A stretch of DNA of 64,000 nt from contig OZ025874.1 of NCBI GenBank assembly GCA_964019415.1, positions 3,578,696 to 3,642,695 on the forward strand, in the 5' to 3' direction. Source of the DNA: Ianthella basta (taxonomy: Eukaryota; Porifera; Demospongiae; Verongiida; Ianthellidae). The position numbers and the translations under genes were made by a program. The notes under the pieces are model-generated. The model ran no database searches, was not told the DNA's origin, and was given only the letters and a program-made list of their open reading frames with translations. This document shows positions 14,323-59,604 of this stretch, one piece after another (within the stretch, counting starts at the first letter, position 1; each line of letters begins with the position of its first letter).

Positions 14323-15847
14323 ATGCGTATGACGATCCTACCAATAATATTCTTCGTCTATTCTTCTGGAGGGGCTGCATCCCAGCCCAATTCGAGGCCC
14401 GTCCTATCCTCCTCTTCCCTCAGCAGGATGGTGGTGTCCAGGTCGACTGGTGACGTGTTCCTCGCAGACCAAGACACCGTCTACCTCCTTCCCGGAGATC
14501 TGGGCGAGGTAACGAGCAATGTCAGTCGTACGGCGGGGCAGACACCAGAGGGAATGACACTCTCCAAGCAAGAGGACAAGCTAATTGTGTGCTGGGCATC
14601 CTTTATGCTGTTGGCCGGTGACTCCTTCAGTGACGCCCCCTGTGTAGTGTACAATTCGACCAACCTCCAAACACTGCAGACTATCACCAGTGATAGCATT
14701 GCAGTAGGTGCCGCTCGAGGTAACCCGTACTTGGTGAGTCAGGGCTTTGTTGAGGATGAAGGAGAAACGTTCTACGTCATGTCAGTGGGTGACAGTAACC
14801 TGTACCACCGCGAGTATCGCATTCCTGACGGTGCTCGGGCCTCTGAGACACCAACCTTCATCGACATGGATATAGCGGACAGAAGATACCTGAGTGGGGC
14901 AACTGCAGGGAACTTCTCATACTTTGCTGTTACCACTATCGAGAGTACCAATATTGGGGGTCGTACTGCAGCAGTGAGAATGGTCCGAGTGTGTAACGTT
15001 GAACCAAGTAATGTAGACACAGTGTGGGATAGCTGGTACGAGATTCAGGTGATTTGTGGCGCAACTCAGGGAAGCTTGGCAGATTTTGATAACGAACTGA
15101 TCAGTGCAAACTTCCTCTACCCCAGCGATGGAGCAGAAGAGCCACTCTTGGTTGTGTCAGCCTTTACTGATGCAAGATTGTTATCCTTCTGTACTGTTCC
15201 TTTGTCTATGATTGATGCCTCAGCAGGAAACATGTCCAACTCTTGTGCCACCAACGATGTGCAGCTCCAGTTTCCATGGACAAACACTGGACCATGCTCC
15301 TCCACAGTAAGTTAGATAAATGCATGCATACATTTCACCTGGTTGAAATGAGTTTACGTTTTGTCCTCTTCAGGCAGGTTTAACAGAGTGTGACTTGTTG
15401 GTGGACCTCGGCATAGTTGAGCGTGGTCCGGTAAGGCTGGCCACTCAACCTCTTGAACTGGCTAGTCCATTACCTGGTTTTGGGGCCATCATGAACTCCC
15501 AGCCATTTCTTAGCCTGTCAAGTCGGGCCTCCTCTTCGGAAGTGTTTGTAGTGGATGGAGTGGTGGTCATCATTGTAGGATACTCCAGTGGTCAAGTCAG
15601 GAAGGTATGTATCTACATATTTACAGCTGTGTGTGCGAGGTGTGTAGGTCCTATATGTGCTTTACATGTTGTCACTTAGTACAGTTGGAGTTACTTCTAT
15701 TTTGTACCTCAGTATGCTACGAGGCGCTTTTCAGACACGAACACCAACCCAGCCCCAGAGCGCACTTGGTCCCTGTCCTCTAAGGAAGTGAAAGCTCTGT
15801 CTCACGCTAGTGGATCTGACTTTGTATACGCACTCACTGAAGATGAG
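14323..15847 (+). CDS. Copy B exons 1-3: signal peptide and sema domain
   Basis: The ATG at 14323 opens MRMTILPIIFFVYSSGGAAS, a short hydrophobic leader. Sema follows across exon 1 (984 nt), exon 2 (231 nt) and exon 3 (135 nt), with VRVCN, WYEIQVICG and SFCTVPLSMID. It is the intact reference against which the deletions in C and D can be read. Homology to A, C and D starts abruptly at the end of the signal peptide. Confidence 0.87.
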
Positions 15848-18800
15848 GTATATATGTGGATGAGTTTAATCTTATTGCTGCCGATACTTTCACAAACAGC
15901 ACCTCATATGTATATACACTTGCCCCCATTCCCCTCCCAGGTCCGCTGTCTCCCAGTAGAGGAGTGCTCCAACTTCACTGACTGCAGTGCCTGCATCACT
16001 GAGGGAGGCCTGCTGTGTGGCTGGTGTAGTGTGGAGAACAAGTGCTCCAGAAGACCAGAGTGTGCCAACAGCAACAGTTCTGATGGACTGAGGTGGGTCC
16101 AGAGAACTGACAGGTGTCTGACAGTGGACATTGCATCAGCTGTGAGCATTTCAGGAGAACAGACAGCCTACCCAAGAGAGACAACCAGCATTGTAAGTTT
16201 AGCACAGATGTGTTCGTTGGTTGTATTTTGATGTGGATTTATTAGTATTAGTTATACCACGGCGCTGAGGTGTATGTGGATTTTAGGCGCACGATGCCCG
16301 AGGGCGCGAAGCGCCCGAGGGCGAGTGCGTCTAAAATCCATATACACCTCAGCGCCGTGGTATAAGTGATATATACCCCGTCTAGCGCGTCTAGGCTCTT
16401 ATTCGAAAGGCGGGCTTCTTCCAGGATGGCAGCTCTGAAGAGCGCCTGTCAAGTTTTGTTGAATTCGCAAGTGCTGTGAAGTTTTTGCCTTTTGTTAAGC
16501 CACTGGAGCAACACTCTAAAGAAGCCAGTGAAGTGATTGAGGCATCTGCGACGTTTTCGGCCTTCGAGGGTTCTTTGCGCTCGCTGTTCGTATTTCTGTT
16601 CTCCGTAAAACAGTGCGTTCCCACTGCTGCAGTGAGTTTGGGTACCTTTGCGTACGAATTAGTGCACGAGCTTGCTGTTTCTCATTTGTGCACTGTGCGG
16701 GTCGCGTACATGGTTTATCTAGCTCGGCTACGAACCGCTTTACATTTTTGGCTTGCGTGCATTGGTTGCAGCATGGTGGAGTGAGGTAATCTCCTTTTCA
16801 ATGCTTTGTGGACTCTCCCGGAGCCACGCAAAGTTGAAGCTGACTGCAAATTGCTGCATTTCTGTGTGTGCTTTGGTGTGATTTGACACCTTCGTTATCA
16901 AAAACAATTTCTTGTTATCTTTCACACCTTCCATATTTGGGCTGGGATATAACAGGATTTAAGCGCCCCTGTGCATATATGTGCTTCTTAGCTCCTGTTA
17001 TATCCCGGCTGGCTTGTTTACGCGATATATTTTCGCGCGGTTGCCATGGCAACGGGGTATATCATGTAATAGTCATCCTCTGTCAGGTGTAATTCACAGT
17101 GATCGTGTTATCAGAAGTCACATTCGCGACGTCTATTTAGGAATGTGCCCGGTTCAATATGGCGTCTTCTATCTTAATGTATTAGGGGGCTTCAGCGAAA
17201 CTTGCCAAACAGCAGTGGCAAAGAATAATTAAAGGCCATGGATAGGCTTCTTTTGATGTATTGACGACGGCAGCATGCCCAAAGGATACCTGGAGTGCAT
17301 GTACGTAAGAGAAAAGCATCATAGGCTGCTCGTACCCCATTTTGTCTTTTCCTCAGTCTTTTTTGTTGAAAACGTCATAATTATGACTGACACATACACC
17401 ATGCGTACAAATATACATGGGGCATGGAAGAAACTCAGACACAGGCGTATACCCAGACCAGCATTCAGCTGGGAAGGAATGCCTGGCAAGCTTGTGAGCA
17501 AATACAAGGTAGAGATGAAGAGCTTATGAACTAAGATAAAATGAGTTAATTATTAAATAGTTTGGTGACAGAGATATATGACTGTTAAGTGGACGCTGAC
17601 ATGAAAGGATGGATTAGAGGAGTATTTGGGTTCCAATCGATACTACATCTTGCTTGGAAGATGTGGGCTGAGCATGCTACTGCGGTCTTGCTTAATTTGA
17701 ATAAGAGATTTGAGATTGATTGTTTGGTCTGTGTTGGGAGGATGGTTTGAATGGTGGTGATTGCCTCCTTGGTAAAATGACCAAGAGAGCCTATTTCCAG
17801 GGTATCCAGGACCAAGGGAAACCTGCAGCCTCAAGATCGTTTGTGAGGGCGATGTAGTTTTGCTTGGATTGTTTTCTCATCCAGGCATTTGTGATGTGTG
17901 CCTCTGTGTTTGCTGGTACTGTGAGCTCCAGCAGTTTGATAGCCTTGTCCTGGATGATGACGATGTCTGGGCGGGCAGTGGTCGGGACAATGGATAGGGG
18001 CACAGCTGATGGAGGGTTGTCCAATGCCCTGTGGCCTGGCAGGTCTGTGTACAATGTAGGTGGGACCTCAAGATGTCCACAGTGTGGGCCAAAACAGAGT
18101 TGTGACGTCATGTGTAGCGATCCTGCATCAGTCGGACAACAGTTTAGAATGTGGTTGACTGTGCATGGCCGTGAGCAACACAGGGGGCAGGAGTGGTTGG
18201 ATTGTAGCCTCCATTGGCAGAGGTTCACTGGTGTGGGTAGACAGTAAATACCAGCTCGGATCATGAAGGACATCTGTCCAGCTGATAGGGTGAACAGTCC
18301 CAAGTCGTGTATGAGGACTTTTGTACCTAGATCAAGGACTAGGATCTGAGTGCCAGTGGCAATCCGATAAGTACAGCGCTGGAGCGGGCAGGAAATTTGT
18401 CCTTGTCGTGTTTTAAAGATACCCCAATGCCGCCATTTTATTGCGCTGGTATACTGTACAGTACACAGCAGCCGCTTCATCTAAAGTGGCATAACTGTTG
18501 TCGATGCTCTGCACAATCTTCAGCTAATTTAAGGAAGGGGTATTAGTCAACGATGGTTTCAATCTGATGTAACCATAGTCCTTTCCATATGCAAAAACTG
18601 TACAAACAAGTGTATAAAATTCCATTAGAATTAAAAGGGATTTAGGAATGGCCAGCAGAAAAGCATAGAAACAAGCAACAGTAACTCAACACCATGATGA
18701 ACCACATTGCCATAACGTTTTTATGCATTCCTAATTTCTTTGTAGCTACATGGGACTAGCTAGCTAGACATTTGGGTCCATGTAGCTGTACAAGGAATGA

Positions 18801-21800
18801 ATAGCGAACTTCATGGCAATGTGGTTCATCATGGTGTTGAGTTACTGTTGCTTGTTTCTATGCTTTTTCTGCTGTCCATTCCTAAATCCCTTTTAATTCT
18901 AAAGGAATTTTTTATACACTAGTTTGTACGGTTTTTGCATATCCAGAGGACTATGGTTACATCAGATTGATACCAACGCTGACTAATACCCCTTCCTTAA
19001 ATTAGTTGAAGATTGTGCAGACAATCAAGCACAGTTATGCCACTTAAAGTCTTTAGATGAAGCAGCTGCCGTGTACAGTACGGTAAACTGGAGCAACAAA
19101 ATGGCGGCATTCGGGTATCTTTAATACATGGTGAGGACAAACTTCTCACCCACTTGAGTGCTGTATTGGATTGCCACCGCAGCTCGGATATTTTCCCTTC
19201 ACGTCCATACGTAAGTCCTCGTACATGACTTGGGTCTGTAGGTGCCTTGTGTCGTGCTCTAGGAGCGTGCAAAAATTCGGTGGGAAGGAGAACAAGAATA
19301 ATATGAAAAGACAAAATGGGGTACGAGCAGCCTATGACGCTTTTCTCTTACATGCACTCCAGGTTGCCTTTGGGTACGCTGCCATTGTCAATACATTAAA
19401 AGAAGCCTACTCATGGCCTTTAATTCTTCTTTGCCACTGCTGTTTGGCTAGTTTCACTGAAGCGCTCTAATACATCAAGATAGGGACGCCATTTTGAACC
19501 GGGCACATTCCTAAATAGATGTCACGAGCGTGACGTCGGATACTGAGGACGACAACGCATCACGATTACTTGCCTCATATTTCGGTTCAACAATCAAGCT
19601 CAAGTGTACGATGCAACATTAACACTCCAGATATCAACTGGTTGCATAATAACATGACGCCATGTTATGCATGCAGTCCTCGTGAGTGTGTACATATCCT
19701 GGTATCATGGCACAGCTGTGAGTCTGTCTTTGCTACCCTTCTGTGTCTCCCAAACTCTGTAGGTGCATCCAGCTGTCCCTCTGTCAATTTTGGTATCTTA
19801 GCTACTCACCACTAATCTCAATCACTTTGCACTGCAGTGCAGTTAGGATGGTTGCTGAGCGACGTGACATGATATAACATGATCGAATGCCTTCCTTTTC
19901 CAAAATGCTTGCAAACAAGTATCTACGTAATATGTGCGTATAACCCTTGTAGATTTGTCTTGTCATAAATCCTAGATCATGGACCCCTGTAGATTCGTCT
20001 TATCATATAATATACTAAACAAAGTAAGGCACCGGCTGTGTTCAGTTGCCATTCAGTTTTATGATGAACAGCTGATGAAGAAGTCAAGCAAACCATTCTG
20101 GTAATAAACATTCACCGTAATCACATAGACACTGTGGCTTCATTCATTTAATGACATTAATTTTTATGTACAGTAATATGGAGGGCAATGACCATCTTAA
20201 TTGTTAGATGGTCATTGCCGTCCATCACATATCTACGTAGATCAGTTAGATATGTGCATAAGGCAGATTTGCAGGACAAGTAACCGTGATCATTGTTTGT
20301 TTTCCTCTTGAATTATATAGTTGTAATTATTGTAGTTTTGTTTTCCTCTCCTAGAACATCATAATCAACAATCTTCCAACTCCACTTTTGAGTGATTCAG
20401 AGTTATTTGAATGTGTTTTGGGGACATTTGGAAGTGGGAATTTGACTGCCCAGAGTGGAAACACATACAGATGTGATGTGCCACACATACCACCATTTCA
20501 AAATGAAGGTAAGGTACTAGCAGCAGGTACAGCTGTATGGGGACTGGAAAAGGCAATTAGTAGTTTAATGGAGCCATCCTTTAATTACTGCTGATTTGGC
20601 ATTCATGCACATGTGCTGTTCTGTTTCGCATGCTCTTACTAGATGTCACCTACTCCATCTCCTTCTCCCATGGACCTCCTTTATGTACCTGTATCTTCTG
20701 TTTTCCATCCTTCTATGAACGTCATCACATCCTACTCATACTCATGACATTACACTGTGATCATCTCAACTTGTCACGGCTATATGCATGCAGTGTCTCA
20801 GACCGTCAACTTCACACTACGGTCCTCATTACATGGTGTTGACTTTGGACTTGTTCAAAATGGAGTCATCTTTTATGACTGCCTATTGTCAGAAAGGTGA
20901 GCCATTATATTTGTGCTGACAATCCAATGTAGCCTTTTTTCACATCTTTGTTGTCGTGTGCCAATTTCAGCTGTTCATCTTGTACAAGTCGATTCAACTG
21001 CAACTGGTGTCCAATTGAGTTTCAGTGTAGAACTAGTGGAGCAGACTGCAGCCAGAGTCCAGTGGTGAGTGTGCAAACTTCTCTGATACAGTGTCACACA
21101 TGCACCTGTAACTACACCTTACTTAGACTCTAGTCAGAATTTTGTACCCTCTTTCAGCATCACCTAGACCCTTTTACTACCCTCCTCCTCTTCAGTCCAC
21201 CTCTGCCTCCTGCCCCCGTCTCCTGCCTGACCTGACTAGTGATGGCAGGTACTACCTTCATGAAGGACTGGGGCCACAGGATGAGTCACTTGTACTGAGG
21301 GGAGAGAACCTGCTGATGCCAGTGAGTTGATGAGAACTGCTGTGAGACTTCAACTCCACCACTACATCATTTATCTGCTCCTCCAGACCGCTGGCTACTT
21401 CTACAGTTGTGTCATCTCCAGCACTGGTAGTGAGCTGATGGCCACAGTGGATGCCAACAGCTCAGTCACCTGTCAGCTCCCTAATGGTGGTATTACAGTC
21501 ACTGAACTTGAGAGGGTCACAAAGGTGGAGTTGCAGTGGAGGAAGAGTAACAACACCTTTACCATTGAGACTAGCAGTATGGAACAACTCAGTGAGTGTT
21601 CAGTGTTAGATCATTCACATACAGTGTATTAAGTGTGAGTAAATGCTCTATCAGACGTCACGTTCATGACATCTATTTAGGAATGTGCCCGGTTCAAAAT
21701 GGCATCTCCTATCTTAACGTATTAGCGTGCTTCGGTGAAATTAGCCAAACGGTGGCGATAAAGAACAATTAAAGGCCCTGGATAGGCTTCTTTGGATGTA

Positions 21801-24800
21801 TTGAAGTCGGCAGCGCACCCAAAGGTAACCTGGAGTTCACAGAGGAAAAATGCGTCATAGGCTGCTCATACCCCATTTGTTCTTTTCATATTATTCTTAA
21901 AACTAGCTGAATGCCCGCCCTTCAGGCGAGTTCCCAGTCTGCAGTTGGTAATTTGAGTGTTGAACCAATCAAAACTGTCCATTTGATTGGTAGCATTCCG
22001 TAGACTCACTCCGTAAAACTCCGTGCGTACAGAATTTACTTATGTTAATCCATTTCGAGTAAAGGAGTTCAGTGCCGAAGGCGCTAACCACCTTAGGTCA
22101 CCTCCGTATTGCCATGATATGATCTTCCAAGTTTGGCGAAGATTGGTGAAAAATTGAAGGAGTTTCTGGACAACGAAACACGATCTTTTTCCTATCTCTT
22201 AGATATGGCGGCGACCATAAAAGTGGCGAGAACTCGGATGGAACGACCTTAAACCAAATTTCAGCTCGGAGAGGTTACTCACAGTACACCCTTTCATAAT
22301 CCTACCACGTTTCGTGAAGTTCAGTCCAGAATTAAAGGAGAATCTCCCGGACAACGAAAATGTGTGTTACGTTTATTATAATAAGATTATTCTCCTTCCC
22401 ACAGAATTTTTACACGCGACACAGGGCACCTATTGACCCCATTTTCTAAGATGACATACATGCATACATGGAGGACTAGGATCTGAGTGCCAGTGGCAAT
22501 CTGATAAGTACAGTGCTAGAGCAGGTAAGAATAACTTGTCCTCCCCGTGTATTAAGATACCCCGATGCCGCCATTTTGTTGCGTTACCGTATTATCTAAA
22601 CTACGCACAGCAGCCGGTTCATCTGGAGTGGCAACTGTGCTAGATCTTCTGCGCAATCTTCATCTACTTTAAGGAAGGGGTATTAGTCAGCTGAAGTACT
22701 AATCCGATGTAGCCATAGTCCATTAGATATGCAAAAATTTTACAAACTAGTTTACAAAAATTCTTTTAGAATTAAAAGGGATTTAGAAATGGCCAGCAGA
22801 AGAAGCATAGAAACAAGCAACAATACCTCAACACCATGATGAACCACGTTTCCGTGATGTTGACTCTGCATTCCTAATTTCCTTGTGGATGCATGGACCC
22901 AAATGTCTGGCTTATTAGTCCCATGTAGCTGCACAAGTATGGGTGGGTGTGTCATTGGTGTCAAAGGTTTGGCGGGAGGTGAGGTAATGGGTGCATCTGA
23001 TTATCAGCACAAGACAGCAGTAAAGAAAGATGACCCCAAGAATGGTATTGCAGTGCACTCCTGAATGATATGTACTTACTCACCTACTGTATGTATCTCC
23101 TGCTCCATAGTCTTCATTGCTTCCTTAATTCCCTACTCAGTTGTCCTGTACAACTGTAGTGGCCTCAGTGGAGATGACTGCTCAGGCTGTCTTGGTCTGA
23201 GTGCTGACTACAACTGTGGCTACTGCCAACCAGAATGCAACCTAAACAGCTTGGCCTGTGCTGGGAGTAACCTCATCCAAGCACCAGACTTCGACCAGTG
23301 TGGTGCCTTCACTGTGGCTGAAGTGAGTGAATTGTGCAAAGTGTCTTTTTTATGTCTATAACCAACTACTTTCTCATTACCATCTCCATTTCAGACCTCC
23401 CCATCTGCTGGTCCTGTTGCTGGAAGCACCCTACTCACCATCAGTGGCACCAACCTGGGTGCTTATCCAAGGGAGAACATCAGCATCCTCATAGGAAGGA
23501 AGGAGTGTGTGATTGATGGAGAGAGAACCATCTCTGGAACCAGTCTGGTGTGTGTGGTACCATCTGCAATGGCAGTTTGTAGTGCCGGGGTGACGTTGAG
23601 CAGGAGTGGGGAATCTCCACAGAACATAAGTACTTTCCGATATGCTGCACCAGTGATTTTTAGTATCACTCCTAACAAAGGCACTCCATCTGGAGGCACT
23701 GCTGTGGTGATCAGTGGAGAAAACCTGGACATTGGCAACACAGAGAGGACAACAGGCTATACTGTGCCCAGTGTTGTTGACTTGAATGATTTGAGACGAA
23801 ATTTTACTAGTGTTGAGTAAGTTGATTGCTTCTTTGTGTGTTCTCACCACTTTCCACCCAAAATCACCTGTCCTGGTACTGACTCTGTGTATGAGTTCTA
23901 GGTGTTGCATCTTCCTTGTTCTTCAGGATCCTGAACTCCAGTGCAGTCTCTGGTATGACAAGTCCCCTTGAGGAGAATGAACAAGTTACATTTCGCTTTG
24001 TTGTTGTCAACATTGATGGCATAGATGTATTCGGCAGCGTTCTTTTCCAATATGTCATCCCCCGACTCACATCAGTGCCTGAAAAGCTATTCATTAAAGC
24101 GTAAGTTTGGGAAGGATGTGTGTGAGTTTGGGAAGGTGTTGTAAAGTTAATGCACTGGTGTCTGGCTTTATGTGCATCTTTGTTTCCTTATGGTGGTGGC
24201 ACATCCAGGGGCGTAGCCAGGAATTTTATAAGAGGGTTCCTGTTTATTTGGCCTAATAATATACCAGCTTATGACGTCATAGTGCATCACCAAAATGGCT
24301 GCCAAAAGCAAAGTGAAATGGGAATCAGTATGTTCACCAATGTTGAAGTACGGAAGTAGGACGCACGTGACTAGATGTTGTGCAAGCACTCTTCGACGTA
24401 GACGGGGTGGGCAAAATCTCGGAGATCTGATGCTGTGACGTCAGAGCGGCTGTGCCGTCATGGACAGTGTAGGGCAAACAAATGCCTGTATGAATCCATG
24501 GCCTAGGTATACCAGGCTTTCCATATAGGATGACTAAATGTATAGAAGAGACTAAAAATAAAACCAGCCATAACCCTAACCCTAACGCTAAAATCCAAGC
24601 ATGCTAAGCACATTGGCCGAGTATGCTAAGCACATTGGCCAAGCGAGCTAACCCCAGTGGCTGAGCGAACTAACCCCAGTGGCCGAGCGAGCTAACCCCA
24701 GTGGCCGAGCGAGCTAACCCCAGTGGCCGAGCAGCTAACCCCAGTGGCCGAGCGAGCTAACCCATGTGGGGGCAAGCCAGATGAGCAGATTCCAAGCGAG

Positions 24801-27800
24801 CCACCGGCGAGGACAGCGAACGGTAACGGTAATGGTACCACCAAACTCAACTGTTCCCGTACTACTCTACTGCAACAACGTAGCTAAACAAGCCAGAAAA
24901 AGCAGCAAGCAGTCGACCAAACGAACCACCAGAACGAACTGCCAAAACCAACCAGCCACTGTGAGCAACAGTATTTTATACTAGTTACTTAGGGACTGAG
25001 TAAGTAATGGAATTTATACAGTTTAGAATATAGTCATGTCACGTGCATCCTAAAATTACTTCCGTACTTCAACATTGGTGAACATAGTTAATCCCAAAGT
25101 GAAATTTTGGTCACTAGAATCATGGGAAAACAATGAAAGAGGCGAACAGTTACTATCTATTACAGTGCAGCAGCAGCAGAAAAGGCCAGTAGCAATGCTA
25201 ACTCATCCTCAAGGTCGTTGCTCTCAAATATTTCTCTTTAATTTTTTCTTGTCATTGTATGGCTAGCTGCTTGAAAGGGGGTTTCCTGAAACCCCTGGAA
25301 CCCACCTCCCTACACCCCTGCACATCTGTCTCACATGTGTGACATGCCTTGCTTGGATCTGTGGCTGGTCAAAGATTCATGTAGGCATATTAATATTATG
25401 TTTGGGAGGGCAAGTGTAGTGTCTTACATACAATGCAGGGCTATCTGTAGTTGACAGCAACAAACTCGGTACTATTAGTTTTGACACATATCTGTCTGTT
25501 CTGTGCAGTGGTGGAGTGTCAGTGACCATCATTGGTGTTGACGTTGATGCTGCTGTCCAACCAGTGATCACATTGTTTAACAATAAAAGCATTTCAATGG
25601 GATCAGGAGTGAGTGTGACATGGCACAGGTTTGGTTATGAGTTGGTGCTTCATTTGATATACATAAAGTGTGCTAAACCTTAATAAATATTGTAATTAGC
25701 TTTCACCTTTCTCCCTTTCCAATAGAACTGCACCGTCCAGTCACTCACTTCCATCTCATGTAGAGTGCCCTCCCTGCCTGATGATGTTGGAGTTGGTGTC
25801 CAGTACAACTTCACTATCACCTTTGACCGGTACATCCTCAACAGCACTGAGGAGGCACTGGCACAGTCCTATCTGGAGACTACAGGAAACCCAACATTAG
25901 AATCCTTTGATGAGATCTACACATTTGACAGTGGAAGAACCATAACCATAGCTGTGAGTTGTAATCGCATAATTATATAATGTATGTATTACATGACTGG
26001 TATGAATGATGACCTGCGGTCGCCATGTAGTGTGTAAAGGGAGCCCTGCATGTGTACTATGGCTTTAAGTGTGGGTACATATACAGTATACTACTGGTGC
26101 AGTATTAGGTGTGTATCACTAAATTCAATTTCCAATGAGATTCCTGGGCATGGCATATAGACTCTTCAGAGATGTGATAGATCTAATTTATTAAAAGTTT
26201 ATAAAATGTGGAGCTGATGTGAATTGTATGATGCAGTAATTACATGCAGTGATGTTTCGGTTACTTAGGGCACCAACTTGCACCGTGTTCCTGACAGTGA
26301 CTACTCTGTCACTGTTGGAGGCCAGCCCTGTACAGAACTGGATGTCAACAAGGCAGGAACAGCCATCACCTGTCTTCCTCCACAGTCTGTGTCAGTGTCT
26401 GGTCTGTTAGATCTGGCTGTCAATGTGAGTATATCATTAGTATGTGGAATTGAAGCACACCAATTTTAAAATAAATGATAATTTGTTACAACCTGTGTGG
26501 TAGTCAAGATTTGAATCCTAACATTGTACCATTTGTCCAAAGTCAGGATTTGACATTTTCATGCAGAAGAACTCTTATATACAGCCCATTTACACTAGTG
26601 GTACGATTCCATAACCGGTTATGAGAACTGTTCTATGGATCGGTTTTCATCGGTTCAGCCGCCGTTTACACTAGTTTCAGCGAAACAGGTTCGAGTAATG
26701 CAGATGAAGTGCAGAAAAGGACTATAGCAGTCTCCAACAGATGATTTCCATTGCATAGGTGCTGAATTTCTGAACGAATGGCGGAGTTATCGGTAATTGC
26801 CGCCTGAGCGGCCCTCTCCCATACACAAAGAAGCACCTCTGTGTCACTCCAGACACCAACCATTGCTTTTTACCTGCTTAGAGCACGATACAGACCGCTA
26901 CTGTAGAAGTGAACTACTGAAGCTTCTCTGTGCTCTCAAACTACCCGGTTACGCGCGAGACAAGTGGTGTGAACAGCCGCTTACAAGTGGTATTGTTTTC
27001 ACTAGCAAACGGAACGGTTCTGGACCGGTTTGGACCACCTACCCGAGGTGGTACCGTTCCGCGTAGAACAGTTCGCTTTAGAATCATTCCACGCCCGTTT
27101 ACACTACAGTAAAGTATCATTCTGGAATCGTTCCAGAACTGTTCCACCGCATAGTGTAAATGGGCTGTTAGACGATATTTTTTATCAATAGCAAAAAGTG
27201 AAAAGAAATTGCTTTATATACACATGGTATGCAGCACACAGAAGTCATTGAAGGTACATAAAAGAACCTGTATGCTGTCCACAACTTTGAACACACTGAT
27301 GTGGTACACAGATGACAACCTGTGGAGTTGTTCCATGAATGAGTGACAGCTAGTGCTAATGTCAAAACGATTCTACAGTGTATTCAGATGAAAGCCGAGA
27401 GTTGAAATACCATTTTTGTAGTCTCCCCCTTGAGGTACCACCTGAGTGCATATATTGCTTCTGCCTAAGTGTTTGTGGTGAATTCTTTTAGCAGTGAATC
27501 TCTACTATTTTCTTGTGTCTACGTATAGGTGTATATTGGTGATAATCTGATGGAGCATGTGGGCACACTGCATTATGACCTCAACATCATTCTCACTGGA
27601 CTACAAGACAGGGAATTTAGTGGAGGAAGAATCAGCATCACAGTTAGTTTCGAAATGAATAGTGTTTGTTGTACCTATCAGTGCGCAAACATTTTTTGGA
27701 AATTTTGTTATGTTGCATTATAGTGTCTTTGCTCACCTCTTAGTGTCTTTCTGTTGGAATCAAATACATGACTGTATTACTGACATTATGCACAGTGTGT

Positions 27801-30800
27801 ATTTATGTCCATTAAGGGTGTAACACTGTATCATTGCTTCTTTGCTCACCTTCCCTTATGTCAGAGTCCATGTTGTTACAGGCTGCATTCACAACTGTGT
27901 ATATATACACCTATATATGTCCATTTTAGGGTGTCAACCTGCAACGTGTTCCTGACAGTGACTACTCTGTCACTGTTGGAGGCCAGCCCTGTACTGATCT
28001 GAATGTCAACGATGTAGGGACAGCCATCACTTGCCTTCCTCCTGTTGTGGCACAAGTCAATGCACCAACTGTTGTGAGTGGTTAAACCTCATTACTTTCA
28101 TCATTTTAGCTGTGAATATATACCATCTGCAGTTTGGTTCCAAATATTTTATAAGGATAAATTACATGCAGTGATCAGTTATACTCCTAATATTCCTGAG
28201 TGTGCTACACATGACAGTACAGTGTCACACTTTGTAGTAGCTAGTATGGCTATAATTGGGGGTTCAGACTACATGTATTGCTATGCATAGCAACTTGAAG
28301 ATGATTAATTATTATTGTGGAGTGTGCACTGTGGAGACTGATGTTGATATTGTATTCGTTCACTTTCTCAGAACAATTTTGACTGCCTATATTTTGTTTT
28401 CGTGCCGGAACAGTACAACATCACAGGCAGCAGGCACACAATCACAGATCTACTGCGAAGAGGCTTAAATGTTCCTTGCATGTTGAAGAATTCGTGGGCA
28501 AGACAAAGAAATGAAACAAGTATTTCGAGTTAAAAAACTCGTGGGGTGCCGACTCAAACTACTTGCTAACAACTTCCCTGTGTATGTTCAATAGTTCACA
28601 TAGTTGGGTATGCAGCATTGCTGCTGGTGTGAAAGATGCATCACAATGCCATAGACTGGGGCTGCAAGAGTTTCAAGTCTCCAGACCAGGAAGTCATCCA
28701 GTGAAAGCACCCCTACCAAACTGTCAAAATGCTTCGCTGATGCTTTTTGTTCTACATAACATTCTGAATGAGGATGTACATGTTTATTAGTGCCTGGAGT
28801 AGGAGTGTGCTGGCTAAAACCGCTACCCTAAGTGGTAACACCATGATTCGATTTGTCTCTCATTCGACCTCAGTTGTATTTGGGGCTGTACCTCGCAGGA
28901 GAATAGTTAGATAAGCTTTCTTCTACAATAGTATTACTTAAACATGTTCTAGAAAGAGTTTGCGTACCTTGGGTACACGGCGAAATACGAAGAATGACCA
29001 TTATGAGCCTAGCAAATAGAGAGCGTCGAGCGCGGCCATTTTACAATGTCTGCCAGTGATAATTGGAGCTCTTTCTCGCAGAAGAGACATTCCTTAGGCT
29101 TTTTATTAGTATCACTCTATTAACACATGTTCATGACCACATTTCATTCGATTCAAAGACAGAGAAACGCCAATGGAGATGATTTTAAGCTTTGTAAAGA
29201 TTGATGTGAGTGCCGCCATTTGCAAAATGACCGAAATATATATATATACTAGCGGACAGACCTGCCCGAAGGGCTGGTCTGTCCGCTTGCTCGGCGTATG
29301 CCAGCTGGTTGGACACAGGCTGGTAATGCCATTGCTACTCAGGCCCCAGCTAGTAATGCACTGGCTGGTCATGCATGCTCTGGCAAAGCATAGTCCAGGC
29401 TGGCCTGGTGATGTCAGTGTGGCTGACCTACCATGAGTGCATGCAATTTACATGAAAGATCACTGTAGACAAACAACGGTTAGCTGATGGTTTCTGTGTG
29501 TGAAATGGCCCCCTTTCCTTTTTTCCGCTTCGGCATCGTGCTAGCTTGGGTGTAATCCTCGCACCTGCGCGCGAACGCCAAGGATATGGCAGACTTTCTT
29601 CCAAGATCCAAGATGGCCAATCGTCGGTTCATCCTGGGTTTTCACCACGCGCTCCTCAGCAGCAGCATATGTTAGCACGTCTACCACCTTATATTGATGT
29701 GAGGTACAGTGTGCCACGGATGGGAACGTTTGGGCACGTTTCGTCGACGTTTGCGGGAGGAGTTCGCGAACAACGGTTGGGATTCTTCTTTTGTATTGGC
29801 AGCATAGGAGCGTGCACGGAAAACCGTATATTTTCTCCGTAAATCCAAGATGGCGGACGGTTGTTTGGAGGTTTTTCGCCGCACACTCCTCGGCAGGGGT
29901 TTCTTCATGCACATCGCCCCCCTTAGATCAAGACCGGGTGTGGTGTCCATAATCTGGGAAAGTTTGGTGTCGATGCGCCGTTGCTCGCGGGAGGACTTTG
30001 CTAACAACCGTTCTGCTCAATCCCTCTTTATTGGGGCGAGCCTGAGCGAGCCCCACACTGATCAGTTGTACGGCAGCCGTGTCTGTATATATATATGTAT
30101 CGTACGTCTTACCGGAAATCTCTATTTGTGGCCGAGAAAATGGCTGCCGTTTGTGAACTTCTGGATTATTCGCCACGGGAAAGGGCTAACGTCGGTGTAC
30201 ACGAACGATAAGAGCGCGAATTACCTAACTACTATCCAGTTGACGCCCAATGCTCCACATAAGCTGTAACACAACTCCTTCGGCTTCAGACTTTCATCCA
30301 TGCTTAGAGATGACGCCTCCGAGCGACCATCCACAAGGGCCACAGCGGTTTCAGCAAACACAAGCGCCCGACTTAACTACCTTATTAACTACCATCCATT
30401 CACAGACTGCATCAACAATCTCGCTACCTTAGTAACTACCATCCATTCACGGACTGCAGCCACAATCTCGGCGTCAGAAGAGATACAGAGCTCTGCACGG
30501 CCATGACCTGGGCAAACTGAAATTGGTCTACAACTTTGGAGTGCACACCAGCGGGAAAAGCTGCCCGACATGTACTAGCAACAGCCCGGAGGGAGGATGC
30601 TGCAGTTACCAACTAGCTTCTACACATGGCCTGACGCCCACCACCTTGGAGCCTCTCCACAACAGTGTGCAGGTGCAACCTGCTCCTTCACACTTGTGCA
30701 CGCACAACGGGATGCGGAACTCAATGGGTCAGCTGTACTGTACTGTGTGTAGCTAGCTGCGCCTGCCCAGCTTCACTACTCTCTGCTATTGCCCGGCATG

Positions 30801-33800: not shown

Positions 33801-36800
33801 TTCGCGCACGTTGCCCCCTTAGATCGAGACCGGGTGTGGCGTCTGTAATCTGGGAAAGTTTGGTGTCGATGCGTCGTTGCTCGCAGGAGGACTTCGCGAA
33901 CAACCGTTCTGCTCAATCCCTCTTTATATATACTAGTGTACAAAAATTTCTTTAGAAAAAGCATAGAAACAAACGACAGTACGATACGGTACAGGTTCAT
34001 TACTGCGTGTTCACGATGCAGGGGGAAATTAATGAGCTTCGAGCGCAGTACTGACTTCAGTGGGATACAAGACGTTTCGATCCGTAGATCTTCATCAGTT
34101 GTAATACAAAACTTAGGGAAGCGCGACATTAAATAAGGGTGTGTGTGTCATTGAGTGTCAAAAGTTGGCGGGGGGTGATGTAATGGGTGCATCTAAGTTT
34201 TGTATTACAACTGATGAAGATCTACGGATCGAAACGTCTTGTATCCCACTGAAGTCAGTACTGCGCGCGAAGCTCATTAATTTCTCCCTGCAAACAACAG
34301 TACCTCAACACCACGATGAACCACATTTCCGTGAAGTTCACTCTGCATTCCTAATTTCCTTGCAGCTAGATGGGACTAATTAGCTAGCCATTTGGGTCCA
34401 TGCCACAAGGAAATTAGGAATGCAGAGTGAACATCACGGAAATGTGGTTCATCGTGGTGTTGAATTGAATTGAGCGATTGTAACTTGCCTAAGGGCATGC
34501 CATTGAATTGAGAGTGCATGGGAGGAAATTCAATGGCATGCCCTTAGGCAAGTTACAATTGCTTGCTGCAGCGTGCACTCCAATGGCAATGGTGCAGGTT
34601 CTGACCGGCTGTAACTTGCATGTGCTGGCCCGGAGCCACTGTAACTTGCACTGGTGGTCTTTTTCAATGACCAACTAGCGCAGATACTCTACTGGCACAT
34701 GTGGTGGTGGCTACTGTAACTTGCACTGGTGGTTGTTTTCTATGACCAACTAGCACAGATACTCTACTGGCACATGTGGTGGTAGCTACTGTAACTTGCA
34801 CTGGTGGTCTTTTTCTATGACCAACTGACGCAGATACTCTACTGGCACAGGTGGTGGTGGCTGCGATATTGTTGCACTGTGTGGTGGTGGTGGTGGTGGT
34901 GCTTTTTCTAGAGCAATGGTGCATATACTGAATGCATGCATTGAAACATGCACAGTGTGGTGGTGGTGGCGGTCGTTTCATCTAGAAATGCATGTGGTGG
35001 CCATAATATTGTAACTTGCACTGTGTGGTGGTGGTAGTAGTATATGGTAGCAGCACCTGATGTGCATGGTGGTCTGTTTTCTTGCAGCTGTAGCACATAA
35101 TATACTGCTCATTGCAACTTCCACTGTGGTGGTGATGGTAGTTGTATTTATCTATTGGTAGTATAGTAGCTGAATATTGTGGCTGGATAGTTGTGAGCAA
35201 GTGTACATGTGGGTGCTGCTCTGCTCCAGCATAGCAGCAAATGCCTACAAATTGGTGTCAAAATGTGATTGTTCAAAACATCGCCTCCATTTTGTGACTA
35301 ATTAAGCAATCCTGCTAATGTCATGAGCAAATGGGCCATCTAACTATGTCCACTTAGTATCAAGACTTAGCGGGGCGGGGTAGGTGGGATATGCATTGAA
35401 CCTCACTTTTCTCGGCCATTTTGCGACTAATTAAGAAATCCTGTTGATGACATGAACAGGCGGATTATCTGGCTAGGTCCACCAAGTGTCATGACTGAGC
35501 GGGCCTGGCTGATTGAATAAATCATACACCTAACATATGTCGGCCATTTTGAGGCTAATTAATAAATCCTGCTAATAACATAAGAAGGTTGACCACTTGG
35601 ACGTGTCCACCAAGTTTCACGCCTCAACAAGCTCAGTTGCATTAATATAAATGCGCCATACATTAAGTGCTCTCCTATGTGCATTTATATTAGCATTTTG
35701 CAGGCTGCTTGTAGAAGAATGAAGACTTAATTCCGTCTCATTTAAAAGTCTCAAAATCTCCCATACTTCAAAGCCATACCTAGCACATGTTCATGAGGGC
35801 CGCCAAACCCCCTGGGAATTATTTATTTATTTATATTATATTATTTATTTACTTTAGATTAGTGGTGTATATTGTAACTTGCACTGTATTTAGATTAGTG
35901 GTGTATATTGTAACTTGCACTGTATATAGATATACGAACATGAAGCCATACGAATACCTAAATCTGAAAACAATATAGGGGCGCATTTGGCGCCCCAATA
36001 AAAATGCTTGTTTGGTCTGAAACAATGACTGGTGTACTCCTCAGTCACGCTCATTCTATAAGTATATAGCTCTGCCCATTCCGGGATTAGCCATTTGCTA
36101 TGAATATCATTAAGGCTTTCCAACCGCCAAAGTTAATTCCATCAAATGCCATAATTTCAGCAATCTGCCATAGTAAAATCCCACCAAATGTCTGGCCATA
36201 CAATAGGTATTGTCAAGGCATGCAGCAGCATGCAGTATGATACTCTGCAATTCTGTAGGTTCACATTGGAACCTTAATGACAGTGGATGTTGGCAGTCTG
36301 AGCTATGCTGGTGTTATCTTTGGAAGTTTATTGTCTGCCATTTCTCTATTGCTTGTGTTGGCAGCGATTGCATTCTTCATAGTCATTAGTTGTAAGCTGT
36401 ACAAGAAGAGGCTGTCTCGTGAAAAGGCTCACAACAAACAACTTGAGCAGGAGGTGCTCAACATGAAGTCACAGGTCACCATGATACATGGACAGATGAA
36501 AGGTTTAGTGTTTATACACTCATAACATATAATACATTCACATGCAGTTGAGGAATATATGTTTGAATTGAGATTATGCATCTCATGCAGCCCTAAACGG
36601 CAAATTTATAAACTCAAAATACCAGATCCACATACTGTATATTTATTAACAGCTAGTGTACTCAATTTAGTAAACGCTCATTGCTACATCATATGCCTTG
36701 AAATAGGGGATTCTCATATGCAATTCAAAAAGTAGAAAGTTGAAAAATTACAAGGTTTGGCAGTTGAGCAACGAGGCCTTCTCTGCTGCTAGATGTGCAA

Positions 36801-38383
36801 GTTGCAACCCAAAGCCAGAGGGTTATCACTGGATAGTATGCCTACCAGCCTCCAGAGACACTTTGGTGTAGAAGGCTAGTAGGCGTGAAATCCAGTGATT
36901 ACCCCTTGTTCAACCTAGCCTGGTCTGGCCGTTGCGGTGGCTTACTGCAATGAACTGACCTCTCAACAATCTCATGCAAGTCAAGTACACTCATGACTTA
37001 GCCTTCCCCCATTAATATTCACTCTTGTTGAAACCACAAGTATTTCACCGGTGGTGGATGCAAGAGTAGCTGGTCATCCTGCATTCCATCAGTATGCCAC
37101 ACTGATGAGCCCCAATCAGCGCGAAACAGCTGTCTGTGGCTCTTCCATTTTTGTAGGATGATTAGCAGGGGAAGGCGATCACTGGTTGCCATCAATAGGG
37201 CTCTTGCCCCCCAGCCTCCTGAGACACTTTGGTGTAGAAGGCTGGTAGACGTAATATCGAGTGATTAGCTCTTGTTCAAAGTACATGTATAGATGAAGGA
37301 AGGAAAATTCAACACCCGAAGTATCAAACCTAAGATCTAGAACTACAAGGTGGAGTGGAGTCTCAGCCACCTAGCCAAAACAGCCTGTGTGACCATTTAC
37401 CTACCCCCTGAAGTCATGACTCCTTCAATCAGTGAAATGGTATTCTACATACCTAATCACAAGTCAGCTATATTCTCCTGAAAGGGTAACACTTATACAC
37501 GGATATAATTACATAAAGTTAGCTTGCAGAGTCAGACTGCTCTCCTTCATTTAATTAAACTGTTAATGCGCCTTATTATAGTAAGTCGCATTAAGGTCTG
37601 TTGGAAGTCTATGGAAATATACTATAGTAAGGCGCATTAAGGCAAGACAAGTGCAGTTAGTCATTTACTATAGTAATTGGCTAACTGCACTTGTGTTGCT
37701 ATGTATGTACATTTGCTAGCCTCATGCAGCTTGTGCGCATGATACCTATAGCATAGGATCCATCATGTGTGTGTATTGGTTCATTAAACATACCACTTCT
37801 ATTTGCTGTGTTCACAGAAATGGCTGGAGGAAAGCAGCCTCAAGGTTCTGGCAAGATTTACTCTGAAATTGATGATGAACCGTATGATGCTGTATTGGGA
37901 GCAGATTCCATTGTAGCTCAGCAAAACCCTGCTTATATCCCAGTCTCTAGATCTCAGCCAAGCAGTTCCCCCAACCCCAGTACAAATGCACCTATCCCTG
38001 TCTCTCACATCTATGTGAATGAGGGGGCAGACAACTACAACATTACTATAAACAGCAGAGATGAGGAGGAAGGCACAGAGAGGGTGAAGAGTAGGATGGA
38101 TGAGGAGGGAGAAGATGACACCTACTATACACCCATGGATGGCGGGTCCAGAGAGGTGGAGGAAGTGGGGAAGCCAGTGCCGAGTAGGGCTGCTTTGAAG
38201 GAGGCACAGAAGCAGAGTAAGGCAGAAGAGGAAGGCACCCTTGATTGGGAAATGATTGCTGGTGCTACCACTTTGGGTGAAGTTGATGGTACAAGTGGGA
38301 GTAATTGGAGAGAGAGTGGGAGTGGTGTTGCCACGGAAACAGCACCACATGAAGTGATCGACACGGAAACTACAAGTTTGTAA
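14323..38383 (+). CDS. Plexin-like receptor, copy B, complete, with tyrosine-motif tail
   Basis: Nineteen exons: 14323-15306, 15374-15604, 15713-15847, 15941-16192, 20355-20508, 20794-20896, 20971-21064, 21196-21321, 21387-21591, 23141-23322, 23395-23816, 23927-24100, 25509-25608, 25726-25953, 26269-26424, 27529-27642, 27930-28073, 36259-36502, 37818-38383. The total is 4614 nt, divisible by three, 1537 residues, no internal stop, all GT-AG. Layout: signal peptide 1-20, sema to ~450, PSI1 451-534, IPT1 to ~619, PSI2 ~620-651, IPT2 to ~761, PSI3 to 822, IPT series to ~1268, TM ~1285-1311, juxtamembrane helix to ~1349, tail 1350-1537. The plexin RasGAP region is absent; the tail is a short acidic segment with YxxI, NPAY, YVNE and YTPM motifs. 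By analogy it is a surface receptor that could recruit SH2/PTB adaptors (inference). Confidence 0.86.
15941..16192 (+). CDS. Copy B exon 4: first PSI domain
   Basis: This 252-nt phase-0 exon with ECSNFTDCSACITEGGLLCG and the WCSVENKC core is a PSI cysteine knot. It is intact and nearly identical to the exons of A and D. The acceptor is CCCCTCCCAG at 15931-15940 and the donor is GTAAGT at 16193. Confidence 0.88.
16253..16366. repeat. Perfect-type hairpin repeat in copy B intron 4
   Basis: TTATACCACGGCGCTGAGGT at the left end is mirrored by ACCTCAGCGCCGTGGTATAA at the right end. The GC-rich loop region contains GAGGGCGCGAAGCGCCC, itself a smaller palindrome. It is MITE-like with no coding content. 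The following ~700 bp (16370-17080) has an open frame of 102 codons (16476-16784) with no recognisable features. Confidence 0.8.
17110..19540. mobile_element. Large foldback element in copy B intron 4 with nested retroelement fragment
   Basis: The left end (GTCTATTTAGGAATGTGCCC, ~17130) is the reverse complement of the right end near 19500. The arms pair through ~17345, resume at ~18330 and meet near 18760. Between ~17350 and 18330 the left arm is interrupted by sequence with retroelement coding capacity. Related copies, in pieces, lie at 21655-21900 plus 22470-22960 and at ~34300-34450. No transposase is visible. Confidence 0.75.
17791..18310 (-). mobile_element. C-terminal fragment of a retroelement polyprotein (zinc knuckle and RLE-like nuclease)
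   Basis: On the minus strand the frame reads LPTPVNLCQWRLQ, then CPLCCSRPCTVNHILNCC (a CCHC-like knuckle) and later ARPDIVII...KLLELTVP, the PD...(E)LT arrangement of restriction-like endonucleases at the end of RLE-type non-LTR elements. The RT domain is absent. The open frame extends to 18480, but its first ~55 codons lie in the host foldback arm and are not part of the protein family. Dead fragment. Confidence 0.68.
20355..21591 (+). CDS. Copy B exons 5-9: IPT1, PSI2, IPT2
   Basis: Exons 20355-20508, 20794-20896, 20971-21064, 21196-21321 and 21387-21591 have the same lengths as in A, C and D. Exons 5-6 form an IPT-like domain ending YDC. Exon 7 is PSI2 (SCSSCTSRFNCNWCPIEFQC). Exons 8-9 form a second IPT with VISSTGSELMATVDANSSVT. 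Phases 1, 2, 0, 0, 1 join without gaps or stops. Confidence 0.85.
21655..22970. mobile_element. Second foldback-family copy in copy B intron 9, itself interrupted
   Basis: The block at 21655-21900 matches the outer arm, and 22470-22960 matches the inner arm, of the element at 17110-19540 (same order and orientation as the left arm). The gap is filled by a separate ~485-bp insertion (21901-22384). The mirrored arm is missing, so this is a half element. Confidence 0.7.
21901..22384. mobile_element. ~485-bp insertion with 8-bp target duplication
   Basis: It starts near AACTAGCTGAATGCCCGCC and ends in TTATTATAATAAG, flanked on both sides by ATTATTCT. The uninterrupted site ATATTATTCTTG is preserved in the mirrored arm at ~19290-19300. 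The 5' signature ACTAGCTG...CCCGCC resembles the starts of repeats at ~29250, 30872, 31853, 32478 and 33143. The class is unknown. Confidence 0.65.
23141..24100 (+). CDS. Copy B exons 10-12: PSI3 and IPT domains
   Basis: Exon 10 (182 nt) is PSI3. Exon 11 (422 nt) carries two IPT domains, the first with TISGTNLG and the second with ITPNKGTPSGGT. Exon 12 (174 nt) completes the second. The donor after exon 12 is a normal GTAAGT; the same site is mutated to AT in copy C. Confidence 0.86.
24206..25320. mobile_element. hAT-like non-autonomous element in copy B intron 12
   Basis: It begins CAGGGGCGTAGCCAGG and ends CCTACACCCCTG (inverted match CAGGGGTGTAGG). The direct repeat CACATC flanks it at 24200-24205 and 25321-25326. 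The orthologous place in copy A (near 85-105) lacks the insert, so it arrived after the A/B split or was never in A. CAGGG-type termini point to the hAT group. The interior carries minisatellite and telomere-like repeats and no transposase. Confidence 0.8.
24570..24765. repeat. CCCTAA repeats and ~22-bp minisatellite
   Basis: A short TAACCCTAACCCTAAC run is followed by about eight copies of a unit close to GCTAACCCCAGTGGCCGAGC. Units vary by single bases and one has a 2-bp deletion. All of this lies inside the hAT-like element. Confidence 0.85.
25509..28073 (+). CDS. Copy B exons 13-17: membrane-proximal IPT region with extra IPT half-exon
   Basis: Exons 13-15 (25509-25608, 25726-25953, 26269-26424) match C exons 13-15. 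Exon 16 (27529-27642) starts like the C membrane exon (VYIGDNLM...) but its helix is replaced by 19 polar residues (from IILTGLQD) and it splices out in phase 0. Exon 17 (27930-28073) repeats the motif of exon 15 (RVPDSDYSVTVGGQPC), so it is a duplicated IPT segment. This looks like a junction where a 3' module from another paralogue was added to a C-like gene. Exons 16-17 are the least certain part of the model. Confidence 0.72.
26581..27168. mobile_element. TIR element in copy B intron 15
   Basis: Termini ACAGCCCATTTACACTA and TAGTGTAAATGGGCTGT are exact inverted repeats of 17 bp. Subterminal sequence is also partly inverted (GAACTGTTC, CGGTTC-type motifs). No coding frame is recognisable and the target duplication is unclear. 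Confidence 0.78.
29570..33925 (+). repeat. Nested tandem repeat family, ~450-bp units (about five copies)
   Basis: Copies at about 29570-30025, 31380-31845, 31975-32395, 32585-33125 and 33470-33925. Each unit holds two half-units that resemble each other, both opening near ATCCAAGATGGC and continuing to CGCGCTCCTCGGCAG. The second half of each carries a short open frame beginning MADGRF or a close variant. Copy four is interrupted by a LINE 3' tail (32685-32793). Confidence 0.75.
32685..32793 (-). mobile_element. LINE 3'-end fragment with (TTGAA)n tail
   Basis: An ATTCAATTCAATTCAAT run is followed by ~95 bp of unique sequence, interrupting a tandem unit exactly where its neighbours read continuously (ACCTTATAT / TATTGATG). 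A related arrangement, with (AATC)n, lies at 59576-59680. Microsatellite-like 3' tails are usual for CR1/L2-type LINEs (family knowledge). Confidence 0.5.
34066..34103 (-). ncRNA. Hammerhead-like ribozyme core, minus strand
   Basis: Read on the minus strand: stem I TACAA/TTGTA, core CTGATGA, one extra A, stem II GATC-TACG-GATC, GAAA, then ACGT followed by C at the expected cleavage position. This matches a type I hammerhead with a 2-bp stem III, apart from the extra A. It is the mirror of the motif at 34206-34243. Confidence 0.5.
34206..34243 (+). ncRNA. Hammerhead-like ribozyme core, plus strand
   Basis: Stem I TACAA (34206-34210) pairs with TTGTA (34239-34243). CTGATGA is at 34211-34217 and GAAA at 34231-34234. 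Stem II is GATC/GATC closed by a TACG loop. CGTC precedes the predicted cut after 34238. One extra A lies between CTGATGA and stem II, so activity is uncertain. Confidence 0.52.
34490..35210. repeat. GTAACTTGCACTGGTGGT-type satellite
   Basis: Three ~90-bp direct copies at ~34640-34860 share GACCAACTAGCGCAGATACT-like text, followed by GTG-rich variants. The complementary family recurs at 56890-57190. The 34496-34560 stretch is a separate palindrome (GGCATGCCATTGAATT-type arms). Open frames rich in T and P are translation of the repeat. Confidence 0.7.
36259..36502 (+). CDS. Copy B exon 18: transmembrane and juxtamembrane helix
   Basis: The acceptor CTGTAG precedes VHIGTLMTVDVGSLS, followed by the membrane helix AGVIFGSLLSAISLLLVLAA and onward to VISCK. 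Basic residues KKRLSREK mark the cytoplasmic side. The exon ends with a likely coiled-coil helix (KQLEQEVLNMKSQVTMIHGQ), shared almost exactly with C and with fragment E. A similar leucine/glutamate-rich helix sits at this place in true plexins (family knowledge). The phase-1 donor joins the tail exon. Confidence 0.85.
36503..37817. repeat. Copy B intron 18 with direct repeats, ribozyme-like motif and palindromes
   Basis: Two ~95-bp direct repeats (36822-36914 and 37175-37279, sharing GACACTTTGGTGTAGAAGGC) flank the hammerhead-like motif at 37096-37140. Further on, 37562-37640 and 37656-37703 are two palindromes (arms TTAATGCGCCTTA and ACAAGTGCAGTTAG with their complements). They interrupt sequence that is shorter in fragment E. 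Confidence 0.65.
37096..37140 (+). ncRNA. Hammerhead-like ribozyme motif with palindromic stem III
   Basis: Stem I GCCACA (37096-37101) pairs fully with TGTGGC (37135-37140). The core is CTGATGA (37102-37108), stem II lies in 37109-37122 (G-C, C-G, one C-C mismatch, C-G), GAAA is at 37123-37126, then stem III ACAG/CTGT without a loop and C at the cleavage position 37134. The geometry is type I. A loopless palindromic stem III is known from hammerheads of Penelope-like elements, which can act as dimers (family knowledge). Imperfect stem II may mean decay. Confidence 0.62.
37818..38383 (+). CDS. Copy B exon 19: tyrosine-motif cytoplasmic tail
   Basis: The terminal exon encodes 188 residues to the TAA at 38381-38383. 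Motifs in order: IYSEIDDEPYDAV (two YxxI/V motifs), QQNPAYIPV (NPxY), IYVNEG (YxN), DTYYTPMDGG (YxxM). The C-terminal half is rich in E, K, S and T. There is no RasGAP, Rho-binding or kinase sequence, and 188 residues is far below the ~600 of plexin cytoplasmic regions. NPxY and YxxM are classical PTB and PI3K-p85 SH2 ligands, and YxN is a Grb2-type SH2 ligand. Phosphorylation itself cannot be seen here. Confidence 0.85.
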
Positions 38384-50217: not shown

Positions 50218-50500
50218 GTGTACATCGGTGATAATCTGATGAAGACTGTGGGTGTGCTGCGCTACGAACTCAACATCACTGTCGTTGTTGTGCCTGTGGT
50301 GGTCGCAGTGGTCATCATTATTGCAGTCTTAGTGTTTTTCATCACCTGCCGTGTGTACATGTGGTTCAAGAAGAGGGCAACAGAGAAGGAGGAGGCATAC
50401 AGAAGGAGATTGTCTCTTGAGCAAGCTGAGAATAAACAACTTGAGCGGGAGGTTCGTAACATGAAGTCACAGGTCACCATGATACATGGACAGATGAAAG
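50218..50500 (+). pseudogene. Copy C exon 16: transmembrane and juxtamembrane helix
   Basis: VYIGDNLMKTVGVLRYELNI leads straight into a valine/isoleucine-rich membrane helix (VVVAVVIIIAVLVFFITC) and the basic stop-transfer MWFKKR. The following helix ends KQLEREVRNMKSQVTMIHGQ, nearly the same as in B, although the membrane part is unlike B. So C and B have different membrane exons with the same juxtamembrane end. The exon itself is undamaged. Confidence 0.8.
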
Positions 50501-51392: not shown

Positions 51393-51883
51393 AGATGGTA
51401 CAAGGAAAACAGTCACAAGGTGCCAGCAATATGTACACTGAAATTGATGGAACTACAGTTGAGGGAGAAACTGCTCTTGACTCAGCTGTCCTTGAGCAAA
51501 ACCCAGCTTACCTCTTAGAATCATCCAACACCGAAGTTTATGCGAACGAGGGAGCCAATGTAACCTACTATACACCCATGGATGGAGCAGACTTGGAGGG
51601 AGAGGAGGACGGAATGAGACGTGAAGAGGACAGAACAGACGTCACCTACTACTCACCCATGGATGAGGGTGGGGAGCTGGATGAGGAGGAGGGTCAGCTG
51701 GTGGGAGGGAGGGTGGAGTTGATTGTGGCAGGAGGGAGGACAGCAGATGGGCAGGATATGCCAAATAGAGAGCTGAGTGAAGGAGCTGCCATTGGAGAAT
51801 GTGGTGGGAGCAATGGGGAACATGATGTAGCCAATGAAACTGCCCCAGATGAAGATGACAGCGCCTATACTCCATACATATAA
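51393..51883 (+). pseudogene. Copy C exon 17: tyrosine-motif cytoplasmic tail (open)
   Basis: It encodes 163 residues with no break. Motifs in order: MYTEIDG, EQNPAYLL, VYANEG, TYYTPMDG, TYYSPMDE, SAYTPYI at the C-terminus. Compared with B the order YxEI, NPAY, YxNE, YxPM is kept while spacing and filler differ strongly, which argues for past selection on the motifs. C has a second YxPM that B lacks. No catalytic domain is seen. Confidence 0.82.
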
Positions 51884-56475: not shown

Positions 56476-56884
56476 TCTTTCATGCTGTAACTTGATATTA
56501 AGTGGTACACACGTATACATATATAACGTAGATGACTTTGGATTTTGTTGAGCACTATATAAACTGTTATTTCAATATGATACAAACACGTTTGTATCAG
56601 ATGCATGGGTTTGGAGAAGGTATCGTATCCAGCTGTGTTTGCTGTAATAAATGTAAACCCTTGCAAAAAATGTATGACAGTGTACTCTACTATTCTTTGA
56701 ATCGACTGTAATTGATTTTGACTGAATTGATTTTTATAATAATGAAAGTGACCTATACTGAATTGTCTATACCTGTCCAAATTTGTACAATAGATTAGTT
56801 GCTCATTTCATTTTATGCATGATCAATGTCTAAACTCTTCTTTATTGCAATAATCATAATTATGCATGACCCAGCTTGTTAGGC

Positions 56885-59573: not shown

Positions 59574-59604
<31 letters not shown>

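What the first reader, a model, noticed from the sequence alone, without database searches (positions are those of the whole stretch)
36259..38383. Plexin-type ectodomain joined to a short phosphotyrosine-docking tail with no GAP domain
Seen: a continuous 1537-codon model (copy B) with sema, three PSI and several IPT modules, one TM helix, then 188 tail residues with YSEI, YDAV, NPAY, YVNE and YTPM. Known: plexins signal through a large cytoplasmic RasGAP-like region, while NPxY, YxN and YxxM bind PTB domains, Grb2-type SH2 and p85-type SH2. Inference: this is a semaphorin-type receptor rewired to adaptor recruitment, a receptor class I do not recognise as described.
Basis: partly seen in the sequence, partly recalled or inferred. 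Interest (0 to 1): 0.88.

Follow-up and report, generated by a model that had tools for sequence, protein, structure and literature searches.

The report
Plexin-like receptor with tyrosine-motif tail
This gene model joins a plexin-like cell-surface receptor to a short tail with conserved tyrosine motifs in place of the usual internal signalling enzyme, so the receptor probably acts by recruiting other proteins; sponge plexins without that enzyme were already in print, but I found no description of this tail family.

Summary
Copy B is a 19-exon, GT-AG, in-frame model of 1,537 codons: plexin ectodomain, one TM helix, no RasGAP or RBD. The cytoplasmic regions of five plexins find nothing in the window; their ectodomains do. 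The nearest relative found, P0001, shares the ectodomain (525 of 1,212 identical) and has GAP and RBD.

The tail is conserved. A profile search gave 24 ORFs; 21 carry the tail, 19 of them not the window's own, in three types. YxxM is kept in 21 of 21, NPxY in 19, Y[ST][EKD][IV] in 19, YxN in 12. Motif columns are better conserved between types than the rest (12 of 20 against 16 of 103). B and C tails have dN/dS 0.42.

Two corrections. GAP-less plexins are in print: four of six in the sponge Amphimedon have short intracellular parts without conserved domains (PMC6374515, passages). And the same tyrosines also fit endocytic YxxPhi/NPxY signals. Adaptor docking is plausible, not shown. No transcript was available and the organism was not identified.

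The parts
14323..28073 (+). Copy B exons 1-17: signal peptide, Sema region, three PSI, several IPT
   Evidence: Exon model; Pfam; PDB plexin matches; P0001 alignment
36259..36502 (+). Copy B exon 18: end of an IPT domain, TM helix, juxtamembrane helix
   Evidence: profile match of the IPT strand; paralogues
37818..38383 (+). Copy B exon 19: tail with YSEI, YDAV, NPAY, YVNE, YTPM, ending ETTSL and stop
   Evidence: 21 tails; motif counts
50218..50500 (+). Copy C TM exon
51393..51883 (+). Copy C tail exon (Y[ST]EI, NPAY, YANE, two YxxM), ending YTPYI
   Evidence: P0014
39513..49999 (+). Copy C ectodomain exons; exon 1 frameshifted and partly deleted, stop at 41161-41163 in exon 4
54284..56556 (+). 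Decayed duplicate of B exons 17-19 with stops and frameshifts
201..8624 (-). Copy A, ectodomain exons 1-12 seen; cut by the window start, tail not visible
57749..63450 (+). Copy D, exons 1-9 seen; exon 1 damaged; cut by the window end, tail not visible

Best explanation
Copy B is a plexin-derived single-pass receptor without the RasGAP/RBD region; a short exon-encoded tail from a multi-copy family stands in its place. Shown: gene model, plexin ectodomain, no GAP in the window, conserved tail family. Inferred mechanism: a semaphorin-like ligand clusters the ectodomain; a separate tyrosine kinase phosphorylates the tail; SH2 and PTB proteins dock (YxxM p85-type, NPxY PTB, Y[ST]EI Src-type SH2, YxN Grb2-type where present; these assignments are recalled consensus knowledge). 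Unphosphorylated, the same sites may bind endocytic adaptors. It would work like Met's docking tail, with the kinase supplied in trans.
For: In-frame model; no cytoplasmic plexin domain in B or window; GAP-bearing sister P0001; 21 tails in three types with YxxM 21, NPxY 19, Y[ST][EKD][IV] 19 of 21; motif columns 12 of 20 highly conserved against 16 of 103; tail dN/dS 0.42 over 163 codons; motif combination rare in shuffles.
Against: No phosphorylation, binding or expression evidence. YxN is in only 12 of 21 tails and the YDAV and YxN tyrosines are poorly kept between types (0.25 and 0.41). All tails also have two or more YxxPhi sites. The juxtamembrane likeness to plexins is weak: the local profile alignment did not include it and shuffle support fades when the hydrophobic pattern is kept (up to 2,643 of 20,000). 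Sema is not recognised by Pfam.
Confidence: 0.5

Rival explanations
1. Clearance or decoy receptor: the tail is mainly an endocytic sorting tail (NPxY plus YxxPhi signals) that removes ligand from the surface without signalling.
For: Each of the 21 tails has at least two YxxPhi sites and 19 have NPxY; the motif that is not YxxPhi (YxN) is the one lost in 9 of 10 third-type tails. That these are AP-2 and adaptor signals is recalled.
Against: YxN is kept in 11 of 11 B- and C-type tails, and in C-type the YxxM unit is doubled; neither is needed for endocytosis.
Confidence: 0.3
2. The tail exon is an alternative end: other transcripts of the same gene join exon 18 to GAP exons outside the window, so B is an ordinary plexin with a short isoform.
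For: The nearest relative P0001 has a GAP; no transcript was examined; sequence beyond the window could not be searched (genome search did not complete).
Against: No GAP in the window although the next gene copy starts about 1.1 kb after the stop; copy C repeats the arrangement.
Confidence: 0.07
3. Degenerate leftovers: truncated plexin copies drifting without function.
For: Copies C and D and the 54284-56556 duplicate are damaged; tail linkers vary much.
Against: dN/dS 0.42 for the tail and 0.27, 0.28, 0.32 for the compared ectodomain exons of A, C, D; motifs kept across three tail types.
Confidence: 0.08

Closest known systems
Amphimedon queenslandica Plexin-A1 to -A4 (PMC6374515, passages seen)
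   Same: Plexin ectodomain with a short intracellular part lacking conserved domains
Canonical plexins, e.g. P0001 and P0003
   Same: Ectodomain order and sequence (P0001 525 of 1,212 identical)
   Different: They have Plexin_cytopl and Plexin_RBD (P0001; others by the precomputed domains); B has neither
Met and Met-LP receptor kinases (PMC5344233 and PMC6374515, passages seen)
   Same: Sema-PSI-IPT ectodomain and a tail with a YVN-type docking site
   Different: They have a tyrosine kinase domain; B has none
Kinase-less docking receptors such as CD19 or SIRP-alpha (recalled, no call)
   Same: Tail tyrosines phosphorylated by a kinase in trans
   Different: Immunoglobulin-type ectodomains; no homology claimed

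Membership tests
Plexin | N-terminal Sema domain | tested here: inconclusive
   Pfam Sema no hit; alignment to plexin structures from about residue 163-186; AlphaFold model of exon 1 too poor to use, pLDDT 38.5
Plexin | PSI and IPT repeats in plexin order, single TM | tested here: met
   third PSI sub-threshold in Pfam
Plexin | Cytoplasmic RasGAP domain | tested here: not met
   None in B or by tblastn in the window
Plexin | Cytoplasmic RhoGTPase-binding domain | tested here: not met
   No Plexin_RBD in B
Met / Met-LP receptor kinase | Tyrosine kinase domain | tested here: not met
   No kinase family in Pfam scan of B
Met / Met-LP receptor kinase | Phosphotyrosine docking tail in use | not testable with these tools
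   Motifs present; phosphorylation and binding need experiment
GAP-less plexins of A. queenslandica | Short intracellular part without conserved domains | tested here: met
   Pfam on B and on the 24 ORFs: no convincing domain
GAP-less plexins of A. queenslandica | Homologous tail | not tested

The most novel reading that the evidence does not exclude
A multi-copy branch of plexins swapped its GAP for a modular docking tail. Distinct old tail types are kept while near-identical ectodomains are shared between copies, so one kind of ligand-binding head is plugged into different adaptor-recruiting outputs: Met-like docking signalling reached from plexins without a kinase, perhaps used in recognition or immunity (a plexin-group gene is LPS-induced in the sponge Halichondria panicea, PMC8242945, passages).
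Probability: 0.35. Interest if true: 0.75.

Novelty: new variant of a known kind. Interest (0 to 1): 0.52.

Why it matters
Plexin signalling is usually explained by the GAP domain. A conserved, multi-copy plexin branch that signals or traffics through tyrosine motifs would show that the ectodomain was uncoupled from the GAP without gaining a kinase, and would give the published 'truncated' sponge plexins a testable function. The motifs make direct predictions for peptide binding.

Tried and rejected
Splice to a GAP inside the window: no support. Full-length proteins with the same tail: none among 3,002 candidates. Relatives of the TM+tail profile in viral contigs (61 pattern matches) and in bacterial/archaeal genomes (109): none confirmed. 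A known domain in the tail ORFs: Pfam gave only scattered weak matches in 1 to 3 of 24 members (best 0.0024, one member), PDB none. Diversifying selection on the ectodomain: not seen; totals 0.27, 0.28, 0.32, single exons up to 0.71. Structure of exon 1: pLDDT 38.5, not used further. Juxtamembrane homology to plexins: suggestive only; the P0002 row was anchored one residue off and should be ignored, P0008 was printed but not scored; one search uses the right anchors. Own genome: the genome search did not complete, so copies outside the window and GAP plexins of the same genome stay unexamined. Paper searches: none of the listed papers appeared to describe these tails; I read passages of five papers (PMC6374515, PMC6792448, PMC3787391, PMC8242945, PMC5344233), none in full, and only open-licence papers are held.

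Full report
Observation. Exon 18 (36259-36502) holds the end of an IPT domain, the TM helix and a juxtamembrane helix. Exon 19 (37818-38383) holds the tail with YSEI, YDAV, NPAY, YVNE and YTPM. Pfam on the whole protein gives TIG (five stretches) and PSI (two, a third at E 0.15) and no cytoplasmic plexin or kinase domain. Pfam's Sema model does not hit, but the protein aligns to Plexin-A4 (residues 182-1153) and fly Plexin A (163-649) among 22 matched PDB sequences, and a profile of the N-terminal part matches Plexin-A4 weakly (E about 1e-3). A structure prediction of exon 1 failed to give a usable model (pLDDT 38.5).

Does the tail belong to the ectodomain? Several lines say yes, none of them a transcript. 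The TM exon opens with the last strand of an IPT domain, matched to plexins by profile (18 columns, E 1.7e-7), so exon 17 needs it. A decayed duplicate at 54284-56556 aligns to B's exon 17, TM exon, tail exon and flanks in the same order, without most of B's intron 17. Copy C (50218-50500 and 51393-51883) has the same pairing in the same phase. One database ORF, P0021, runs from TM exon sequence straight into tail sequence, with a stretch between them missing.

Is a GAP hidden nearby? The cytoplasmic parts of five plexins (P0001, P0002, P0003, P0007, P0008) give no tblastn hit at E up to 1e-3 in the window (best 0.095), while the five ectodomains give 7 to 35 such hits each. The nearest relative found, P0001, shares the ectodomain (525 of 1,212 identical) and has GAP and RBD. 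Sequence beyond the window could not be searched.

Is the tail under constraint? A profile search with B and C found 24 ORFs among 7,996 scored candidates; P0010 and P0014 are the window's own. Three are TM-exon ORFs only (P0023, P0025, P0027); 21 carry the tail. They fall into three types: B-type (6, ending ETTSL), C-type (5, ending YTPYI) and a third type (10 with P0021, ending LQAF[QH]GLG). Counts over the 21: YxxM 21, NPxY 19 (missing in P0018, P0021), Y[ST][EKD][IV] 19 (missing in P0013, P0021), YxN 12 (missing in all third-type tails but P0022). In an alignment of 20 tails (P0021 and the three TM ORFs left out), 123 columns are filled in all three types, with mean between-type identity 0.405. 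The seven tyrosine columns average 0.698 (0.89, 0.25, 1.0, 0.41, 0.33, 1.0, 1.0; permutation p 0.016). B versus C: tail dN/dS 0.42 (163 codons, dS 1.3), TM exon 0.20 (79 codons, dS 2.0, near saturation).

Array and tail age. Equal contig lengths suggest that P0010, P0011, P0014, P0018 and P0019 lie on one 1,252,638-base contig, and P0012, P0013, P0016 and P0017 on another of 497,733 (inference from length). For the ectodomain exons compared, B differs from A, D and C by dS 0.159, 0.196 and 0.306, with dN/dS 0.27, 0.32 and 0.28 (12, 8 and 10 exons). The B and C tail and TM exons are several times more diverged at silent sites; exon 12 is intermediate (0.765). The simplest reading is sharing of ectodomain sequence, by conversion or recombination, between genes with older, distinct tails (inference). 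Copies C and D have damaged exon 1, C also a stop in exon 4.

How it may work. In plexins, semaphorin-induced dimerisation acts through the juxtamembrane helix to switch on the GAP (PMC3787391, passages). Here ligand clustering could instead expose tail tyrosines to a kinase in trans, as Met's tail recruits GRB2, p85 and others at Y1356VNV (PMC5344233, passages). Which SH2 and PTB types fit these motifs is recalled, not computed. The strongest counter-reading is endocytosis: YSEI, YDAV, YTPM, YKPI and NPxY can also be sorting signals (recalled), and each of the 21 tails has at least two YxxPhi sites. Both can hold in one receptor. Whether the juxtamembrane helix is that of plexins is open: it lines up in register by eye and in MAFFT, but support is modest.

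Known or new. Junqueira Alves et al. 2019 report six plexins in A. [quoted passage not shown] The terms SH2, phospho and docking do not occur in its main text; its supplements were not seen. So the GAP-less plexin is known; the conserved tail family and its motif set appear undescribed within the searches made. No call identified the organism of this window; 'sponge' remains a guess.

Noticed in passing
43098-45989 (-): LINE-type ORF with endonuclease and reverse transcriptase domains (RVT_1 3.4e-33) in an intron of copy C, open over 963 codons.
   Followed up: partly
9227-10543 (+): Second, different reverse transcriptase ORF (RVT_1 5.2e-19) between copies A and B.
   Followed up: partly
53004-53540 (-): Weak sulfotransferase match (E 0.0026, below the curated cut-off) on the opposite strand between copy C and the decayed duplicate.
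   Followed up: no
29240-33930 (+): Several near-copies of a repeat of about 1 kb or more fill much of intron 17 of B, seen by eye and not measured; the decayed duplicate lacks this stretch.
   Followed up: no
38366-38380 (+): B-type tails end in ETTSL in 6 of 6, which resembles a class I PDZ ligand (recalled consensus); C-type and third-type tails do not end so.
   Followed up: no
P0010-P0020, copies B and C: Tail and TM exons of B and C are far more diverged at silent sites than most of their ectodomain exons, as if ectodomains were exchanged between genes with old tails.
   Followed up: partly
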